Assembly: GCA_018402455.1 (NCBI GenBank)
Contig: JAGYIG010000016.1
Location: forward strand, 1-64,000
Reading direction: 5' to 3'
DNA length: 64,000 bases
Origin: Opitutaceae bacterium
GTDB taxonomy: Bacteria > Verrucomicrobiota > Verrucomicrobiia > Opitutales > Opitutaceae
Shown: positions 12,526-20,573 of the stretch, in pieces
How positions within the stretch are numbered: the first letter of the stretch is position 1
How the letters are laid out: every line of letters begins with the position of its first letter
Notes under the pieces: generated by a model
What the model was told of the DNA's origin: nothing
Databases searched by the model: none
What the model saw: only the letters and a program-made list of their open reading frames with translations
Made by a program: the position numbers and the translations under genes

Positions 12526-15081
12526 ATGTCCGCCGCTCCCAAGCTCACTCCGATGATGCAGCAATACTTCGAAGTGAAGCGAGGGTTGCCCCCCCGCACC
12601 CTGCTGCTCTTCCGATTGGGCGATTTTTATGAATTGTTTTATGAGGATGCTGAAGACGCGGCCCGGATTTGTGGGCTCACCCTGACCAAACGGCAGGACT
12701 ACCCCATGGCGGGCATTCCCCATCACGCCGCAAATAATTATGTGCCGAAGCTGTTGGCCGCGGGGCGCAAGGTCGCCTTCTGCGATCAGGCCGAAACCGC
12801 CAAACCCGGCAAATTGGTGCGGCGGGAATTGACCCGGATTCTCTCTCCCGGCACCACCCTCGCGGCCGACCAACTCGACGAATCACGGAACCATTACCTG
12901 TGCGCCCTGCATCGGGATAAAAAAGGGCTGCACGCCGCGTGGCTGGACCTGTCGACCGGCGAATTTCAATTGGCCTCCGACCCGGCTCCCGAGAATCTTT
13001 TGCCCATCCTGACCGCGCTGGAGCCGGCCGAACTCCTGCTCATTGAGGGCGATGCCGCAGCCTGGCGGGAGGCGCCTCACGACGACACCGCGGCCCACGC
13101 CCTGCGGGATTTTTGTGCCGACCGCATTGTCACGGAACTCCCCGGCTACCACTTTGAAGCGGCCAGCGGAGCCCGCACCGTCATTGACACCCTGAAGGTG
13201 CGCAACCTCGAGGGATTTGGCATCGCGGAAACCCACCCCGGGTTGGGGCCCGCGGGCGCCTTGGTTTACTACGCGACCGAGAACCTTTGTGCGAAGCCGG
13301 AAAACCTCCGGAGCCTGCGGGAGTATCGCAGCGCCACCACGTTGCTGATCGATCCCGCCACGCTGCGGAATCTGGAGATCTTCATGTCCAGCCGGGGCAC
13401 CCGCACGGGCTCGTTGTTGGCCGCGATCAACCGCACCGCGACGGCCGCCGGGGCCCGCTTGTTGGAGCGGTGGCTGGGGGCGCCGGAACTTGATCTGGCG
13501 GAGATCAAGCGACGCTCGGCCACCGTGGGCGAATTGCTGGCGCAACCCCTGCCCCTCGGCGAGTTGCGTGAAGTGCTGCGGCAGGTTCGGGACGTGCCAC
13601 GGATTTTGGGGCGGCTCCAAAATCGCCTGCGCAATCCCCGGGAACTCGGCGGCATTCGCGACACGCTCACCCAACTGCCCGAAATCAACCGGGTGCTCAC
13701 GACGCTGGGCGGACTGCTGGCCCGCCATTACCCGGCGCAAATCGCGGAACTGCCCGAATTGCGGGAGCTGCTGAACCGGGCGCTGGCCGATGAGATGCCG
13801 GCCGACGTCAATGACGGCGGCACCATCCGGGCCGGCTTCGATGCTGAGCTGGATCGGATCTACGCGCTGACCCGGGACAACAAAACCTGGCTCTCGGCCC
13901 TCGAATCGAGCGAACAGGCCCGGACCGGCATCAAGAGCCTGAAGGTCAAATACACCAACAACTTTGGCTACTACATCGATGTCACCAAAGCCAATCTCCA
14001 CCTGGTGCCGGAAGACTATATTCGGCGGCAGACCACGGTGAACAGCGAGCGCTACGTCACGAATGAGCTGAAGGAAAAGGAAAAGGAAATCCTGCACGCC
14101 GAGGAGAACGCATTGGCCCGTGAGAAGATCCTTTTCAACGACCTGATCACAGCCGTGCTCGACCAATCCGTCGCCCTGTTCAACTCCGCCACCAGTTTGG
14201 CGGAGCTGGATGTGTTGGCGGGTTGGGCCGTCCTGGCGCGGGAGTGGGACTACCACCAACCGGAGATTGATGATGGCGATCATTTGGAAATTACCGAAGG
14301 GCGGCACCCGGTGGTGGAGCAAATGCTGAAAGCCCCGGAGACCGCGGCCATGCGGGGGAGTCAGAGTTTCGTGCCCAACGACACGCGGCTCAGCACGACC
14401 GAAGATCAATTGGCGCTTATCACCGGTCCCAACATGGCCGGCAAATCCACCTACATTCGGCAAGTCGCCTTGATCACGCTCATGGCCGAAATCGGCTGCT
14501 GGGTGCCCGCCACGCAGTGTCGGATTGGTTTGGTGGACCGGATTTTTTCCCGCGTCGGTGCCAGCGACGATCTGGCGCGAGGCAACTCCACCTTCATGGT
14601 CGAGATGAATGAAACCGCCAACATCCTCAACAACGCGACCGATCGGTCCCTGATTATTCTGGATGAGATCGGCCGGGGCACCTCGACCTACGACGGCCTG
14701 AGTATAGCCTGGGCGGTGGTCGAGCACTTGCACGGGACCTCCGACCAAGGCCCGCGCACCCTGTTTGCCACCCACTATCAGGAGTTGACCCAATTGGACA
14801 AACACCTGCCGCGGCTCAAGAACTACAGCGTCGCGGTGAAGGAGTGGAACGACGACATCATCTTCGTTCACCGGATCCAGCCCGGAGCGGCCGATCGCAG
14901 TTACGGGATTCAAGTGGCCCGACTGGCCGGTCTGCCGGCCGCGGTCATCGACCGGGCCAAATCCATCCTCGGCAAACTCGAATCCGATGATACCGCGGTC
15001 GAGCTTAGCGCGCCGAAGGCCAGGCCCCGCAAAAAAATCTCGGTCAAGACCGAGGATGATGCGCAGCTGAACCTCCTCTAG
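12526..15081 (+). CDS. mutS: DNA mismatch repair protein MutS
   Basis: An 851-residue protein from the ATG at 12526; an upstream TTG gives a 38-residue extension with no family match. The mismatch-reading Phe-x-Glu is FYELF at residues 34-38, inside the conserved N-terminal block. The Walker A loop GPNMAGKST is at residues 634-642, followed by the LDEIGRGTSTYDG Walker B/signature region and the FATHYQELT motif. It binds mismatches and recruits MutL. mutL is not in the window. Confidence 0.97.
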   Translation: MSAAPKLTPMMQQYFEVKRGLPPRTLLLFRLGDFYELFYEDAEDAARICGLTLTKRQDYPMAGIPHHAANNYVPKLLAAGRKVAFCDQAETAKPGKLVRRELTRILSPGTTLAADQLDESRNHYLCALHRDKKGLHAAWLDLSTGEFQLASDPAPENLLPILTALEPAELLLIEGDAAAWREAPHDDTAAHALRDFCADRIVTELPGYHFEAASGARTVIDTLKVRNLEGFGIAETHPGLGPAGALVYYATENLCAKPENLRSLREYRSATTLLIDPATLRNLEIFMSSRGTRTGSLLAAINRTATAAGARLLERWLGAPELDLAEIKRRSATVGELLAQPLPLGELREVLRQVRDVPRILGRLQNRLRNPRELGGIRDTLTQLPEINRVLTTLGGLLARHYPAQIAELPELRELLNRALADEMPADVNDGGTIRAGFDAELDRIYALTRDNKTWLSALESSEQARTGIKSLKVKYTNNFGYYIDVTKANLHLVPEDYIRRQTTVNSERYVTNELKEKEKEILHAEENALAREKILFNDLITAVLDQSVALFNSATSLAELDVLAGWAVLAREWDYHQPEIDDGDHLEITEGRHPVVEQMLKAPETAAMRGSQSFVPNDTRLSTTEDQLALITGPNMAGKSTYIRQVALITLMAEIGCWVPATQCRIGLVDRIFSRVGASDDLARGNSTFMVEMNETANILNNATDRSLIILDEIGRGTSTYDGLSIAWAVVEHLHGTSDQGPRTLFATHYQELTQLDKHLPRLKNYSVAVKEWNDDIIFVHRIQPGAADRSYGIQVARLAGLPAAVIDRAKSILGKLESDDTAVELSAPKARPRKKISVKTEDDAQLNLL

Positions 15082-15136
15082 CCGCCCGACCACCCGCACG
15101 GGCGATGGCGAGCGAAGCGAGGCGCCCAACCCGCAC

Positions 15137-16186
15137 TTAAACGGTAGCGGGGATGGCGCCGCGGGTCAGGTTCCAGAGGGCCTTGGCTTGGCTGATGGTC
15201 TGGGCCAGCGCCGCGGGGTTCAGCGCCTGCTTGGGGTCATCGCCGATGCCCTTGATCGGCTCAACATGAGCCTCCATGCACAGACCGTCGGCACCGTAGG
15301 CGACGGCCGCCATGGCGCAGGCCGGCACGTAGGCCGCTCGTCCAACGGAGTGCGACGGGTCCACCACCACCGGCGCCCAGCTTTTTTCTTTTAACAACGG
15401 GGTGATGCTTTCATCCGGGTGATTCCGGTAGCCGTCCATCCCGGGCTTGGTTCCGCGCGGGCACAGCAGGATGTTGGGGTTGCCAAAACTCGCGATGTAT
15501 TCGGCTGCCGCGATGAACTCTTCGATCGGTCCCATGTGGATGCTGCGCTTGAGCAGCACCACCGTATCGCGCTCGGCAATGGCTTTGCCAATGGAGCTGA
15601 GCAAGGAGTAGTTCAAGGCGTTGCGGGCCCCGATCTGGAGCATGTGCACCCCGGCATCGAGGGCCATCTTGAGGTGCACCTCGTCCATCACCTCCGCGTC
15701 GACCGGTAGACCCGTGCGCCGGGAGGCCTCCATCAAAATATCGAGGGACTTGTGATCCCCTTGGAAGGAATAGGGATTGGTGCGGGGTTTCCAGACGCCG
15801 CCGCGAATCACCTGCCCACCGGCTTCCTTCACCGCCGCCGCCGTCTCGTAAAAGAAATGGGGATTTTGGGGATCAATGGTGCATTGGCCGGCGATCACGA
15901 ACAACTCCTCGCCCAAGGTGACCCCGCCCAGGGAGATTCGATGGGACGCGAGATCCGACCGTCGGTCCATCAACTTGAAGGGCGACTGAATCCGGTCCAC
16001 CCGATCGACGTAGGGGAGCCCCTCGATTCGGTTGATCATGAGCTTGTCCCGCTCGTCGCCGAGAATGGCGTAGATCGTGCGGACGGCGCCAATGATCGGT
16101 TGGATGCTGCAGCCAAACTCGCTCACTATGGCGGTGAGTTCGTTCACTTGGGCATCGGAGAGTCGATTGGTTTTAGGCAGAATCAT
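15137..16186 (-). CDS. aroF: 3-deoxy-7-phosphoheptulonate (DAHP) synthase, type I-beta with regulatory N-domain
   Basis: A 349-residue enzyme that joins PEP and erythrose-4-phosphate in the first step of aromatic amino-acid synthesis. About 90 N-terminal residues look like the ferredoxin-like regulatory domain of the Thermotoga-type enzymes, which senses Phe/Tyr. The barrel follows: IAGQCTIDP, the RGGVWKPRTNPYSFQG substrate loop, QIGARN, LLKRS, CPRGT, and VVDPSHSVGR near the C-terminus with the metal-binding His. A GC hairpin with a U-run ends 5 bases before the start, behind an aromatic-rich leader ORF, which points to attenuation. Confidence 0.95.
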   Translation of the reverse strand: MILPKTNRLSDAQVNELTAIVSEFGCSIQPIIGAVRTIYAILGDERDKLMINRIEGLPYVDRVDRIQSPFKLMDRRSDLASHRISLGGVTLGEELFVIAGQCTIDPQNPHFFYETAAAVKEAGGQVIRGGVWKPRTNPYSFQGDHKSLDILMEASRRTGLPVDAEVMDEVHLKMALDAGVHMLQIGARNALNYSLLSSIGKAIAERDTVVLLKRSIHMGPIEEFIAAAEYIASFGNPNILLCPRGTKPGMDGYRNHPDESITPLLKEKSWAPVVVDPSHSVGRAAYVPACAMAAVAYGADGLCMEAHVEPIKGIGDDPKQALNPAALAQTISQAKALWNLTRGAIPATV

Positions 16187-16191
16187 GGGAC

Positions 16192-16214
16192 AAAAAAACC
16201 GCCCCGGGGGGCGG
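16192..16214 (-). terminator. Intrinsic terminator abutting aroF start: proposed attenuator
   Basis: On the minus strand a 6-7 bp all-GC stem (arms at 16208-16214 and 16199-16205) is followed by seven T at 16192-16198, then 5 bases and the aroF ATG. There is no room for a promoter between the U-run and the start codon, so aroF transcription must cross this site. An upstream leader segment (16256-16261, GGCGGC) can pair with GCCGCC at 16210-16215, competing with the terminator arm. It could also terminate rluA transcripts. Confidence 0.65.
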
Positions 16215-16246
16215 CGATACGAGGGAGGGTTACCGAGGGGAAACGC

Positions 16247-16318
16247 CTACGCACAGCCGCCGGGGGTCCGGCCAAAGCCAAACCAAAAGCGAAACCGCGG
16301 ATAGGCACAGGAGAACAT
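16247..16318 (-). CDS. Aromatic-rich leader peptide of aroF (attenuation leader)
   Basis: A 23-codon ORF lies between rluA and aroF. It has five Phe, one Trp and one Tyr codons, with the run FRFWFGFG in the middle, then RTPGGCA and a TAG. Such enrichment matches leader peptides of phe/trp/aro operons, where ribosome stalling at scarce aminoacyl-tRNA prevents terminator folding. The GGC GGC codons near its end can pair with the 5' arm of the downstream terminator and would be covered when the ribosome reaches the stop. No clear Shine-Dalgarno is seen, as for many genes here. Confidence 0.6.
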   Translation of the reverse strand: MFSCAYPRFRFWFGFGRTPGGCA

Positions 16319-16343
16319 GGCGGAGGATCACGGCCCACCCGCT

Positions 16344-17105
16344 TCACGTTGTCAACGCCACGTTAAACTCATCGGGCAACGGAGCCTCCGCCAAAAAGCG
16401 GTGGCTGCGTCCGGCCCAATCATAGGTGAACGCGGTGCGAAAGGAGTGCAGAAACAGCCGCGGAGACCCGCCCAGTTTGGCGAACCCTCGATTCCGGCGG
16501 AAATCTCCGTAGGTGGCATCGCCCACGATGGGCAGTCCGCGGTGCGCGCACTGAACCCGCAATTGGTGGCTGCGCCCCGTCTTGGGTTCGAGCTGTACCA
16601 GGGTCAGGGTGCCAAAATTCCCCGTCACGCTCTTCACCTGCTGCAGGGTGGTTTCAGCCGGAACATGGCCCCGGGCGGAGGTGCGCAGGCGCCCGCCTTT
16701 TTTGGCGGTGCTGAGCCGATCCCGCCAATCCGCCCGAAGGGACCCGGGGCGGCCAAACACCAAGGCAGCGTAGATTTTCTGAACCTGACGCTGCTTGAAT
16801 TGCTGGCGAATGTGCTGCGCCAGCTCGGCCGAGCGGGCGAGCAGCATGACCCCGGAAGTCGCACTGTCCAAGCGGTTCAACAGCCACGCCTGGCCAGTCC
16901 CCCCCTCGCCTTCGGGCTGTGGCCACTCATAGCACTCGGCATCCATCGCGTAGCGGCAGGTCAGCAACGAGCGCGATTCATCGCCGGGAGCGTTGGGGTG
17001 CGACAGCAGGCCGGCGGGTTTGGCTACCGCCACCAATCCCGTCGGCGATTCGCTTAGCACGGTGACCCCGGCATGGAGCGGGGCATGGGCGGCAAAGGAG
17101 TTCAT
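16344..17105 (-). CDS. RluA-family pseudouridine synthase
   Basis: A 253-residue protein from the ATG at 17103-17105. The catalytic motif LLNRLDSATSG contains the essential Asp of the RluA family, and GRSHQLRVQCAHRGLPIVGD is the second family motif. It isomerises uridine in rRNA or tRNA; the exact target is not readable. No N-terminal S4 domain is present. It starts 4 bases after the stop of the TonB-like gene, so the two are likely co-transcribed. Confidence 0.9.
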   Translation of the reverse strand: MNSFAAHAPLHAGVTVLSESPTGLVAVAKPAGLLSHPNAPGDESRSLLTCRYAMDAECYEWPQPEGEGGTGQAWLLNRLDSATSGVMLLARSAELAQHIRQQFKQRQVQKIYAALVFGRPGSLRADWRDRLSTAKKGGRLRTSARGHVPAETTLQQVKSVTGNFGTLTLVQLEPKTGRSHQLRVQCAHRGLPIVGDATYGDFRRNRGFAKLGGSPRLFLHSFRTAFTYDWAGRSHRFLAEAPLPDEFNVALTT

Positions 17106-17109
17106 GGAT

Positions 17110-18240
17110 TCACTGGTAGTAGAAGGCCAAGCGAATCGGGGTTTGGTCCCCCAGAATGGTGACCATTTCCTGTTCCCATTCGCCGTAACCATCGGACAGC
17201 CGCGCGGGGGCCGCCACCGCCTCAACCGCGACTCCGTTCCACAACGGGCCAGCGTTTCCCTCCACCTTGTCGATTGTCACCGTGCCATCCTGATGGAGGG
17301 TGAACCACACCAGCACCCGACTGCCGTCCAACGGAAAACCCAGTCGGCGTTCGATCTTGGATCGGATATCGTGACTCCAGCCCAGTCGAATCACCTCCAA
17401 CATGCGGGCGAAATAGTCCCCGAAGGTGGTGCGCAGCGCCTCGTGGGCGACCACCCCGATGTTGTCGGTGCCCGTCACTCGATTCGAAAAGATGGCCGGC
17501 TTGGTTTGCGAGCGAGCGAGATTGGGGCGAGGGGCGGGCCGATCCGGATTCGGCCGATAGTAGATGCCCCGCCCGGTCTCCGAGGCCTGCTCCGGGTCGG
17601 TGACGCCCTCGATCGGTTCGTCGATGTCCGCTTGCGGGTTTTCGGGCAGCTCGACCACATTGGTGCCGATGCCCTCTTCCGCTTCGCCGCTGATGGCCTC
17701 GAAACCACTGAGGGGATCTTGCGCCAGCGCCGGGAGTTCCTCCGGGGCTTCATCCGTGGCGGTGGCATCCGGCGCCGGGGGGATCAACACGGCTGGCGGA
17801 GTGGGCGCGGCATCGTCACCCGAGACGATGGAAGTCGATTCAATGTCGTCCTCCCCTTCCGTCGACGGCATGTCCCCCAGTTCTTCCGCCGCCACTTCCT
17901 GCGCGAGTTGTTGGTTGCGGTCGGAAAACTTGTCGGTCTCGTCGGGCGGATTGTCGGGGGCGTCGGGATTGGCGTCGACGTAGGTGTCCGGGGGCGGCGG
18001 GGGCAAGGTGGCGATTTCAATATCAAACTCTTGGACCCGCGGAGCGTCGTCAGGGCGGAGGGCCAGTTCCCCGTGCCGGAAGGCCCCGCCCATCCTGGGC
18101 GCCAACCACATCAGGAGTAGGTGCACAATGATCGTGCCCGCCAGGCCGGCTCGCCAGGCTGAGCTTTCCCGCGGTCCGGTCACCCACCCGCCCGGAGGAC
18201 GGCGGCGGGGTTTGCGGTGGGATGGCAACGGAGTGGGCAT
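17110..18240 (-). CDS. TonB/TolA-like membrane-anchored protein
   Basis: A 376-residue protein with a basic, Pro-rich N-terminus, one membrane span at about residues 30-48, then an acidic Pro/Glu/Asp-rich linker (about 75-230). A C-terminal domain of about 100 residues carries the sequence GSRVLVWFTLHQDGTVTIDKVEG, resembling a TonB/TolA C-domain. It has no exbBD beside it and is distinct from the tonB at 5.1 kb. The linker is acidic rather than Lys-rich. It is linked to rluA and maf on the same strand; the role is inferred only from architecture. Confidence 0.65.
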   Translation of the reverse strand: MPTPLPSHRKPRRRPPGGWVTGPRESSAWRAGLAGTIIVHLLLMWLAPRMGGAFRHGELALRPDDAPRVQEFDIEIATLPPPPPDTYVDANPDAPDNPPDETDKFSDRNQQLAQEVAAEELGDMPSTEGEDDIESTSIVSGDDAAPTPPAVLIPPAPDATATDEAPEELPALAQDPLSGFEAISGEAEEGIGTNVVELPENPQADIDEPIEGVTDPEQASETGRGIYYRPNPDRPAPRPNLARSQTKPAIFSNRVTGTDNIGVVAHEALRTTFGDYFARMLEVIRLGWSHDIRSKIERRLGFPLDGSRVLVWFTLHQDGTVTIDKVEGNAGPLWNGVAVEAVAAPARLSDGYGEWEQEMVTILGDQTPIRLAFYYQ

Positions 18241-18252
18241 GGACGAGGCGAA

Positions 18253-18837
18253 TCAGAAGCAGAGACCTCCGGCGGTCAAAATTTGTTTCGTTTCATCCAG
18301 GGGCAGACCAATGATGTTGCTGAGGGACCCTTCGTAGCGTTCCACGATCAAATCGCCGTGTTCCTGAATCGCATACCCCCCGGCTTTATCGAGCGGATGG
18401 ACCCGGGAAAGGTAGGTTTCGATTACCTCCTCGGTTAAGGTGCGGAACACCACCCGACTCTCCACGCCCCGATCCAAACGCACGCCTTGGCTCCGGTGAC
18501 GGAGGGCCAGCCCGGTGAACACCGTGTGAGTCCGACCGCTGAGGCGCCGCAACATGGCTTTGGCCTCGGCCAGGTCCGCCGGTTTGTTCAGCACCGTCTC
18601 GTCGACGCACACGGTGGTGTCCGCCCCCAAAACCCAGGCATGGGGATGACCTTGTGAGATCGCATCGGCTTTGAGGGCGGCGTTTTCCAAGACCAGCTCC
18701 CGGGGATCGTGGTCCGGCGCTTCGTTTTCCTGCACCGCCGCCACCTCAACGGTGAACGGAATACCGATTTGGCGAAGCAATTCCCGGCGCCGCGGTGAAG
18801 CGGAGGCCAGAATAAGCGGGGCGGTGGCAAGGTTCAT
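18253..18837 (-). CDS. maf: Maf-like nucleotide pyrophosphatase
   Basis: A 194-residue protein from the ATG at 18835-18837. The start SASPRR motif ([14 protein letters not shown]) is the nucleotide-binding signature of the Maf/YhdE house-cleaning pyrophosphatases that hydrolyse dTTP/UTP and modified nucleotides. GADTTV and GGYAIQEHG complete the family pattern. A longer upstream frame adds an unlikely N-terminus. It is followed 12 bases later by the TonB-like gene and is divergent from nadE (95 bases). Confidence 0.92.
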
Positions 18838-18932
18838 GGGCCCCCCAGCAAATTCGAGTCCCCGGCGAGCACAAGGGCGGGGTTGCGAGTTGTCAGTCAC
18901 CGCGGAATGGGCCTACTTGGGACTTTTCGCCT

Positions 18933-20573
18933 ATGCGCATTGGCTTAGCACAAATCAAACCGACCGTCGGAGACCTTGCCGGCAACCGCGACCTGGTGGT
19001 GTCCGCCTACCAGAATCTGGTGGCCCAGGGCGCTGAACTGATCGTGTTCCCTGAATTGGTGAGCGTGGGCTATCCGCCCCGCGACCTGCTGTTGCGGCGA
19101 CGTTTTGGCGACGATGCCGAGGGCGCCCTTTTGGAAATAGCCGCGGCCACCGGCAGCGTTCCGGCGTTGGTCGGGACCATCGAACGCAATCCGGCCCGCC
19201 ACGGCCGGATGTTTTACAACGCCGTGGCCTGGTGTCAGCACGGTAAAATTCAGCAGTTCGCGCGCAAGATGCTGCTGCCCACCTACGATGTTTTTGACGA
19301 GGACCGCTATTTCGAACCCGCCTCCGCGCCGACCGTATTCGCGATGGAGGGACGGCGCATCGCGGTCACGGTATGTGAGGATATTTGGACTCACTCCCCG
19401 CAGCTGCCCCGTCCCTTTTACCGCCGGGATCCGGTGGAGGAGTTGGTCGGGGACAACCTGGACCTGATGGTCAACCTTTCGGCGAGTCCGTGGCATCATG
19501 GCAAGAATAAGGCGAGGCAGGACTGCGTTATCGCCGCCGCGCGCCGCCTTTCCTGTCCCGTGGTTTATGTGAACGCGGTGGGCGGAAATGATGAATTGGT
19601 CTTCGACGGGCGCTCCATGGTGGTGGACGCCACGGGCCAAGTGGTGGCGGGGCTGAGTTCCTTCGCGGTGGAGCACCGCACCGTGGACATCGCGTCTGCG
19701 ACCACTTCGATCGCGCCGTCGTTCGCCCAAGCGGACATGGCCGATATCCACGACGCCCTGGTGCTCGGTCTTCGCGACTACGCCCACAAAACCGGATTCA
19801 AGCGCGGCCTTGTGGCGTTGAGCGGCGGCATCGATTCCGCCGTGGTCGCGGTGCTGGCCGCCGAAGCCCTGGGGGCGGAAAACCTGCTGGGGGTATCGCT
19901 GCCCTCCGCCATCTCGTCCGGCCATTCGCGCGACGATGCCCGCCAACTCGCGCACAATCTGGGCATCGCCTTCGACACCATTGAAATCGCCGCCGCGGTG
20001 ACCGCCTGCGAAACCGCCCTCCAACCCGCCTTCGGTGACCGCCCCGTCGATGTGACGGAGGAGAACATCCAGGCCCGCATCCGCGGGGTCATGATGATGG
20101 CCCTGTCCAACAAACTCGGTTCTCTTCTGCTCACCACCGGAAACAAAAGCGAAATCGCGGTCGGCTACTGCACCCTCTACGGCGACATGTGCGGAGGCTT
20201 GGCGGTGATATCGGACCTGTTGAAAACTCAGGTGTTTGCCCTGGCCCGCTGGATGAATCGCGACCGCGAAGTGATTCCCTGGCACACCATCCGGAAACCG
20301 CCCAGTGCCGAACTCCGTCCCGACCAAAAGGACGAAGACAGCCTCCCGCCCTACGACCAACTCGATGCCATCCTGCGAGCCTATGTGGAAGAAGGTCTGT
20401 CCCGGCGCGATACGGTCAACCTCGGCCACGACGCCGGAATCGTTGATGACATCGCCCGCAAGGTCGACTGCAACGAATACAAACGGAAGCAGGCCGCCCC
20501 CGGGCTTAAAATCACGCCGTTGGCCTTTGGCGTGGGCCGCCGGATCCCGATTGTGCAACGCTACGTCAACTAA
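18933..20573 (+). CDS. nadE: Glutamine-dependent NAD+ synthase
   Basis: A 546-residue fusion of an N-terminal nitrilase-type glutaminase and a C-terminal synthetase. The amidase triad is visible as E41 ([13 protein letters not shown]), K112 ([14 protein letters not shown]) and C148 (VTVCEDIW). The ATP pyrophosphatase loop SGGIDS is at residues 297-302. It converts deamido-NAD to NAD using glutamine. hemL follows after 18 bases, so nadE may lead an operon of four genes. Confidence 0.97.

What the first reader, a model, noticed from the sequence alone, without database searches (positions are those of the whole stretch)
16187..16318. Leader-peptide attenuator controlling DAHP synthase
A 23-codon leader ORF with five Phe, one Trp and one Tyr codons (core FRFWFGFG) precedes a GC hairpin plus U7 that ends 5 bases before the aro ATG. 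GGCGGC at 16256-16261, within the last leader codons, can pair with GCCGCC at 16210-16215, part of the terminator 5' arm. This gives an alternative fold whose choice would depend on where the ribosome stalls. Promoter space between hairpin and ATG is absent, so readthrough is required. Such a leader is known for phe/trp operons in other phyla; here it would sit on a type I-beta DAHP synthase in a Verrucomicrobiota-like genome.
Basis: partly seen in the sequence, partly recalled or inferred. Interest (0 to 1): 0.78.

Follow-up and report, generated by a model that had tools for sequence, protein, structure and literature searches.

The report
Phe/Tyr leader-peptide attenuator before DAHP synthase
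In one family of bacteria a tiny gene rich in phenylalanine and tyrosine codons sits just before the first gene of aromatic amino-acid synthesis, next to two competing RNA hairpins, and most likely lets that gene be read only when phenylalanine or tyrosine runs short.

Summary
On the minus strand a 23-codon leader (5 Phe, 1 Tyr, 1 Trp) is followed by GGCGGC, an intrinsic terminator and the ATG of a DAHP synthase. A covariance model built from 21 relatives and run on 252 family genomes hits 57 at E<=1e-4. I read 50 of these 57: all 50, in 12 genera, lie before DAHP synthase with an aromatic leader, a terminator and a competing antiterminator. Leader codons are 29.6% F/W/Y against 7.6% in reference ORFs. 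Phe and Tyr codons swap at the same columns, and the last aromatic codon starts 18-19 nt before the antiterminator arm in 43 of 50. Corrections: Trp is absent in 26 of 50 leaders, so Phe and Tyr are the likely signals; TTGACA lies 35-38 nt before the leader start in 49 of 50, suggesting a leaderless transcript; a third hairpin lies inside the leader codons. The kind is known: C. glutamicum aroR-aroF is closest in function. No Rfam family matches, and my searches found no report in Verrucomicrobiota. The mechanism is inferred; no expression data were available.

The parts
16350..16355 (-). TTGACA box, candidate -35 element, 37 nt before the leader start codon; overlaps the 3' end of the upstream pseudouridine synthase ORF
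   Evidence: TTGACA in 50 of 50 element loci, 35-38 nt before the leader start in 49 and 41 in one. The script asked for TTGAC and tried only distances 35-38 and 41; no locus given to it failed. TTGACA is rare: 31 on both strands of 464 kb. Promoter function is inferred.
16327..16332 (-). weak -10-like position (CGTGAT here; family tendency CACNNN) 17 nt after TTGACA
   Evidence: C at this column in 50 of 50, A next in 43 of 50, not in the window itself; not TATAAT-like; inferred
16247..16318 (-). leader ORF, 23 codons, MFSCAYPRFRFWFGFGRTPGGCA, control codons Phe/Tyr
16265..16284 (-). P1 hairpin inside the leader codons (8 bp), candidate pause or anti-antiterminator hairpin
   Evidence: across 49 loci the region folds better than synonymous-codon randomisations, mean z -1.77, 41 of 49 below -1; above 0 in L004, L006, L126
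16256..16261 (-). region 2 (GGCGGC), 5' arm of the antiterminator, within the last leader codons
16210..16261 (-). antiterminator hairpin: GGCGGC pairs with GCCGCC (16215..16210), inner stem GTGCG/CGTAT
   Evidence: -24.1 kcal/mol here; pair counts
16192..16215 (-). intrinsic terminator, GCCGCCC/GGGCGGU stem and U-run
   Evidence: -13.7 kcal/mol; conserved in 50 of 50 loci
15137..16186 (-). DAHP synthase, type I-beta-like, with N-terminal ferredoxin-like regulatory domain (349 aa); the regulated gene

Best explanation
This is a ribosome-mediated transcription attenuator of DAHP synthase, the entry enzyme of aromatic amino-acid synthesis. Shown from sequence: a short aromatic-codon leader, an RNA arm (region 2) just after the aromatic codons, and two hairpins, antiterminator and terminator, that share an arm and so cannot form together. 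Inferred: RNA polymerase starts at or within a base or two of the leader start codon, and a hairpin in the leader (P1) may slow it so that a ribosome can load. If Phe-tRNA and Tyr-tRNA are charged, the ribosome runs to the stop codon, covers region 2, the terminator forms and transcription ends before the gene. If Phe or Tyr is scarce, the ribosome stalls about 19 nt upstream of region 2, region 2 pairs with the terminator's 5' arm, and the gene is transcribed. Trp codons are optional.
For: Element before DAHP synthase in 50 of 50 hits read, of 57 family genomes hit at E<=1e-4 among 252 searched. Aromatic codons 378 of 1276 (29.6%) against 7.6% in 180 reference ORFs. Among 22 leaders of 28 aa, Phe/Tyr swap at columns 8, 16 and 17, and column 11 is Phe in 21 with TTT 14, TTC 7, so the residue and not only the RNA is kept. 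Last aromatic codon 18-19 nt before region 2 in 43 of 50; the leader's stop codon ends 0-26 nt past the start of region 2 in 49 of 50, the other row being misassigned. Antiterminator covariation score 0.141 against 0.069 in shuffles (0 of 500 as high) and above all six slid versions. The upstream gene is not constant: no homologue of the pseudouridine synthase in 4 of 23 loci with long flanks, two of these with a divergent neighbour. In the genus no class II DAHP synthase was found (0 of 8); the only other match to the protein in the window's genome is a KDO-8-phosphate synthase, so the gene looks like the sole DAHP synthase there.
Against: No transcript, ribosome-profiling or reporter data. 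In one search two measures do not beat shuffling (pairs with double change 5 against 3.4, 58 of 500 as high; further pair types 6 against 7.3, 483 of 500), the shuffles ignore relatedness, the structure was set by hand from one member, and the outer stem hardly varies. RNAalifold on the unguided alignments did not find the antiterminator. The antiterminator is predicted more stable than the terminator in 37 of 50 loci, so without translation the default might be readthrough. The element is patchy in the family, so it is dispensable.
Confidence: 0.88

Rival explanations
1. The hairpin is the ordinary terminator of the upstream pseudouridine synthase gene, and the aromatic ORF is a chance frame.
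For: In the window and 18 of the other 22 loci with long flanks a homologous pseudouridine synthase gene lies upstream on the same strand.
Against: The element is kept in L003, L004, L015 and L131, where the neighbour is a different gene (deiminase, nitronate monooxygenase, EamA transporter, FAD oxidoreductase), divergent in L004 and L015. An aromatic ORF lies between TTGACA and the hairpin in 50 of 50. Several relatives without the element show what looks like the end of the same upstream gene close to DAHP synthase, with no terminator found by script (that gene was not confirmed there by a homology search).
Confidence: 0.02
2. The leader peptide is a nascent-chain sensor (TnaC-like, recalled): the peptide itself arrests the ribosome in response to a small molecule, rather than codon-by-codon stalling on uncharged tRNA.
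For: The core has recurring patterns (such as FxF[WR]GYF and FAGYF) at a fixed distance from region 2.
Against: Phe/Tyr interchange, a column that is W in 10 and R in 10 of 22, and variable N-termini fit codon control better than a specific arrest peptide. TTT and TAT are used more than in reference ORFs, which a peptide-only model does not explain, though RNA folding might.
Confidence: 0.06
3. A metabolite- or protein-binding RNA (riboswitch, T-box or RNA-binding protein site) controls the terminator and translation is not involved.
For: Conserved RNA sequence and structure around region 2.
Against: No Rfam family matches in window 14000-19000 even at E<=5; aromatic columns of the leader change synonymously or between Phe and Tyr, which only translation explains.
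Confidence: 0.03

Closest known systems
aroR leader peptide upstream of aroF (DAHP synthase), Corynebacterium glutamicum (Neshat et al. 2014, not read; known from passages of PMC11802643 and PMC4046766)
   Same: Leader peptide with Phe-Tyr-Phe before a DAHP synthase gene; [quoted passage not shown] same biological logic.
   Different: Different phylum; here the leaders have 4 to 9 aromatic codons. I did not compare the RNA sequences or the enzymes, so homology is untested.
ilvBNC attenuator of C. glutamicum (PMC11857589, passages; Morbach 2000, title seen in a reference list)
   Same: Leader peptide reported to be made without a ribosome binding site; three hairpins described as anti-antiterminator (also linked to pausing), antiterminator and terminator.
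   Different: Branched-chain amino-acid codons, another operon and phylum. The leaderless start is only inferred here.
trp and pheA leaders of Escherichia coli (passage of PMC11802643; details recalled)
   Same: Leader peptide, control codons, terminator and antiterminator.
   Different: There the leader controls the trp operon or pheA; here the script found no aromatic leader with terminator before trpE (7 of 8 genus genomes looked at) or pheA (7 loci), and DAHP synthase is the target. In E. coli repressors that bind aromatic amino acids control DAHP synthase genes (same passage).

Membership tests
Ribosome-mediated (leader-peptide) transcription attenuators | Short ORF enriched in codons for an end product of the pathway controlled | tested here: met
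   378 of 1276 codons F/W/Y in 50 loci against 7.6% in 180 reference ORFs
Ribosome-mediated (leader-peptide) transcription attenuators | Intrinsic terminator between leader and gene | tested here: met
   50 of 50 loci; such a hairpin was a condition of the collecting script, but no locus given to it failed
Ribosome-mediated (leader-peptide) transcription attenuators | Antiterminator that shares the terminator's 5' arm | tested here: met
   49 of 50 by script, the fiftieth with region 2 placed correctly; covariation, not on every measure
Ribosome-mediated (leader-peptide) transcription attenuators | Control codons and stop codon placed so that stalled and terminating ribosomes have opposite effects | tested here: met
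   18-19 nt from last aromatic codon to region 2 in 43 of 50; stop ends 0-26 nt past its start in 49 of 50. Ribosome footprint size is recalled.
Ribosome-mediated (leader-peptide) transcription attenuators | Response to amino-acid supply that depends on leader translation | not testable with these tools
   needs reporter or RNA-seq
Rfam release 15 families | Match to a curated covariance model | tested here: not met
   0 matches in window 14000-19000 at E<=5
C. glutamicum aroR-aroF attenuator | Homologous RNA or leader | not tested
   sequence not fetched
Leaderless leader ORF | Transcript begins at the start codon | tested here: inconclusive
   35-38 nt from TTGACA in 49 of 50, but no transcript ends and a non-canonical -10. 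An SD-like 4-mer before 1 of 50 leaders says little, because it is no commoner before ordinary genes than in a control window (19 and 18 of 206)

The most novel reading that the evidence does not exclude
A leaderless, dual Phe/Tyr attenuator of the entry step to aromatic amino acids, found across an Opitutaceae-like family. Transcription begins at the leader's own start codon from a rare TTGACA-anchored promoter, a hairpin written into the control codons times the ribosome, and in part of the family the Trp codon has been traded (TGG to CGG) for a stronger stem.
Probability: 0.5. Interest if true: 0.6.

Novelty: new member of a known kind. Interest (0 to 1): 0.5.

Why it matters
The papers that I saw on leader-peptide attenuation concern mainly Proteobacteria and Actinobacteria. 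Searches joining it with Verrucomicrobi* or Opitut* gave no report of it there: none held all terms, and the three papers that hold 'leader peptide', 'attenuation' and 'Verrucomicrobia' use the words for other things. This gives a covariance model and fifty examples read. They show natural swaps of Phe, Tyr and Trp control codons on one RNA scaffold, a natural experiment on which amino acids the switch listens to. If the transcript is leaderless, it is also a case of a ribosome loading at the 5' end in step with RNA polymerase in this phylum.

Tried and rejected
Rfam at a loose threshold: nothing. RNAalifold on raw alignments gave 7 and 6 pairs without compensatory change. I then set the structure by hand from L064 and counted pairs; such a structure leans towards its source, and the slid controls answer that only in part. 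Two of the five measures, and one (further pair types, 451 of 500 as high), do not beat shuffling.

Model hits outside the family (L132, L134) and two weak in-family hits (L128, L129) were read: no DAHP synthase start or leader with terminator was seen. Twelve places between E 0.0018 and 0.0099 were not read. Of the 57 good hits seven were not read (G177, G160, G165, G078, G151, G080, G072); for G177 only the 80 nt before DAHP synthase on another contig were seen, with a terminator (L066). The model misses divergent copies (L178, L183), so 57 is a lower bound.

trpE (7 of 8 genus genomes; L142 left out) and pheA (7 loci): no aromatic leader with terminator within about 1.5 kb of the matched stretch; two aromatic or Trp-rich short frames far upstream (L137, L153) and two short frames without enrichment at 36 nt from TTGAC (L143, which is a weaker relative of trpE, and L150) have no terminator by the script (for pheA the match may start inside the gene).

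TTGACA 41-47 nt before DAHP synthase in loci without the element looked like the same promoter; by eye it coincides with a stop codon of the upstream gene and I dropped the idea. On the tree L012 and L052 count as 'no' although only 84 and 184 nt of flank were seen, and L042, L090 and L091 fell out for want of a clean reading. One search failed to find starts and was replaced. In one search region 2 of L125 was misassigned. The collecting script demanded TTGAC at 35-38 or 41 nt (41 was added after seeing L126), at least 4 aromatic codons and a GCCGCC..GGCGG hairpin; all 50 loci given to it passed, but its counts cannot show that such features are universal. P1 randomisations used leader codon weights.

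Full report
What is there. All features are on the minus strand. A leader ORF (16318..16247) encodes MFSCAYPRFRFWFGFGRTPGGCA. Its last codons contain GGCGGC (16261..16256). About 45 nt on comes GCCGCC (16215..16210), the 5' arm of an intrinsic terminator whose U-run ends 5 bases before the ATG at 16186. That ATG starts a 349-aa protein with the DAHP synthase domain and the ferredoxin-like regulatory domain, both over Pfam's cut-offs (PF00793, PF18152). Its nearest solved relatives by sequence include 1rzm and 3pg9. Its best NCBIfam models are DAHP synthases, though it stays below their curated cut-offs, so it is a divergent member.

Relatives. Strong matches to the enzyme (E<=1e-130) were found in 25 of 38 relatives and matches at E<=1e-100 in 200 of 252 genomes of the family. 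The family is named from one relative's public record, titled Opitutaceae bacterium. Upstream DNA showed the same arrangement in 21 loci of seven genera. A covariance model from these (A4, R1) hit 70 of 252 family genomes at E<=0.01 and 57 at E<=1e-4. I read 50 of those 57. All 50, in 12 genera, carry TTGACA, an aromatic leader, region 2 and a terminator, and a DAHP synthase start lies downstream in all 50, 552 nt or less from TTGACA. One further hit at E 0.0016 was also real (L181). In a draw from the order, 9 of 223 genomes matched at E<=0.001; seven are of the family, and the two others were read and are not real. Of 13 DAHP synthase loci of other families fetched, 12 could be analysed, three of them with 206 to 443 nt of flank: none has a terminator or an aromatic-rich leader by script. 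Three more (L023-L025) have no TTGACA; L025 has one 16-codon aromatic frame 313 nt upstream. The element is thus known here only from this family. Within it, presence is patchy: six changes on a 58-row gene tree as drawn, of which well-supported branches force two (quick tree).

Codons are selected. F, W and Y make 378 of 1276 leader codons (29.6%) against 7.6% in 180 long ORFs of the window and of one same-genus genome. In 22 leaders of 28 aa, column 11 is Phe in 21 with TTT 14 and TTC 7, and columns 8, 16 and 17 interchange Phe and Tyr. Trp is absent in 26 of 50 leaders. In the 28-aa set one column is W in 10 and R in 10 of 22 (TGG or CGG), and CGG extends the leader hairpin (folds, read by eye). 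So the likely signal is Phe and Tyr together, which fits the entry enzyme of the pathway. Leaders use TTT 167 to TTC 80 and TAT 71 to TAC 36, whereas the reference ORFs prefer TTC and TAC; the reference covers only one genus, and RNA folding may be the cause.

RNA structure. In the first 21 loci the leader region folds on its own (P1), region 2 pairs with the terminator's 5' arm, and the terminator folds. For the window the energies are -15.6, -24.1 and -13.7 kcal/mol. On A4 the antiterminator pairs in 83.0% of cells. Its covariation score is 0.141 against 0.069 in shuffles (0 of 500 as high) and 0.036 to 0.091 in slid versions; cells with a double change are 16 against 6.7 (0 of 500). Five of six inner pairs have changes on both sides, the outer stem has none. 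Against this, pairs with a double change (5 against 3.4, 58 of 500 as high) and further pair types (6 against 7.3, 483 of 500) do not beat shuffling. With P1 added the score is 0.183 against 0.108. The shuffles ignore relatedness. P1 is more stable than synonymous-codon randomisations in most loci: mean z -1.77, 41 of 49 below -1, above 0 in L004, L006 and L126.

Geometry. The last aromatic codon before region 2 starts 18-19 nt upstream of it in 43 of 50 loci. The leader's stop codon ends 0 to 26 nt after the start of region 2 in 49 of 50; the other row, L125, was misassigned and shows the same pairing when corrected. From the general size of a ribosome footprint (recalled), a ribosome stalled at that codon leaves region 2 free, and one waiting at the stop codon covers it. 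This is the core of the mechanism, and it is inferred. The antiterminator is predicted more stable than the terminator in 37 of 50 loci, so what happens without translation is open; in the window's full leader fold region 2 is paired upstream and the terminator forms.

Promoter. TTGACA lies 35-38 nt before the leader start codon in 49 of 50 and 41 nt in one (only these distances were tried, and every locus fitted). The A that completes the hexamer was not asked for and is present in 50 of 50; a C 23 nt on is in 50 of 50. The hexamer occurs 31 times on both strands of 464 kb. With a usual -35 to start distance (recalled), transcription would begin at the leader's start codon. The -10 region is not TATAAT-like, no transcript data were available, and SD-like motifs are no commoner before ordinary genes here than in a control window (19 and 18 of 206), so their absence proves nothing. 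Of two divergent copies outside the 50, L178 has the leader 41 nt from TTGAC and L183 has none at that distance.

Context. In 19 of 23 loci with long flanks, the window among them, a pseudouridine synthase homologue lies upstream; in L003, L004, L015 and L131 it is another gene, divergent in L004 and L015. The element therefore goes with DAHP synthase and not with its neighbour. No class II DAHP synthase was found in the 8 genus genomes, and the second match in the window's genome is a KDO-8-phosphate synthase. trpE (7 of 8 genus genomes looked at) and pheA (7 loci) show no aromatic leader with terminator by script.

Compared with what is known. DAHP synthase attenuation by a leader peptide is described in Corynebacterium glutamicum: aroR, with Phe-Tyr-Phe, before aroF (passages of PMC11802643 and PMC4046766; Neshat et al. 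2014 itself not read). The ilvBNC leader of that species is made without a ribosome binding site (title of Morbach 2000 in a reference list), and its attenuator is modelled with three hairpins in roles like those proposed here (passages of PMC11857589). The main text of a genome-wide study of premature terminators (PMC2965389) holds none of Verrucomicrob*, Opitut*, aroF, DAHP, aromatic* or phenylalanine. Three papers hold 'leader peptide', 'attenuation' and 'Verrucomicrobia'; their passages concern other matters. Most subscription papers are not in that library. I file it as a new member of a known kind.

Noticed in passing
L178 (G060) and L183 (G059), upstream of DAHP synthase: Divergent copies that the model missed: L183 keeps the terminator and an aromatic frame but no leader start at the usual distance from TTGACA; in L178 region 2 reads GGGCTGCC and the terminator arm GGCCGCCC, still partly complementary by eye.
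   Followed up: partly
L037, L038, L050, L059, L072, L074, L077: In these relatives without the element TTGAC lies 41-47 nt before DAHP synthase, apparently overlapping the stop codon of the upstream gene; a bare promoter or a coding coincidence.
   Followed up: partly
G003 stretches L154-L173: SD-like motifs are no commoner before genes of 200 aa or more than in a control window (19 and 18 of 206), so this genus may initiate translation mostly without Shine-Dalgarno pairing; gene starts were predicted simply.
   Followed up: partly
L025, just upstream of DAHP synthase: A DAHP synthase of another family is preceded by a 14-codon frame with several aromatic codons (MLFIENYYISIGFD, read by eye); no terminator was noticed; possibly chance.
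   Followed up: no
L110, L111, L112, L116 (genus g52): Here the whole element is kept but DAHP synthase starts 384 to 552 nt after TTGACA, so a few hundred bases lie between terminator and gene.
   Followed up: no
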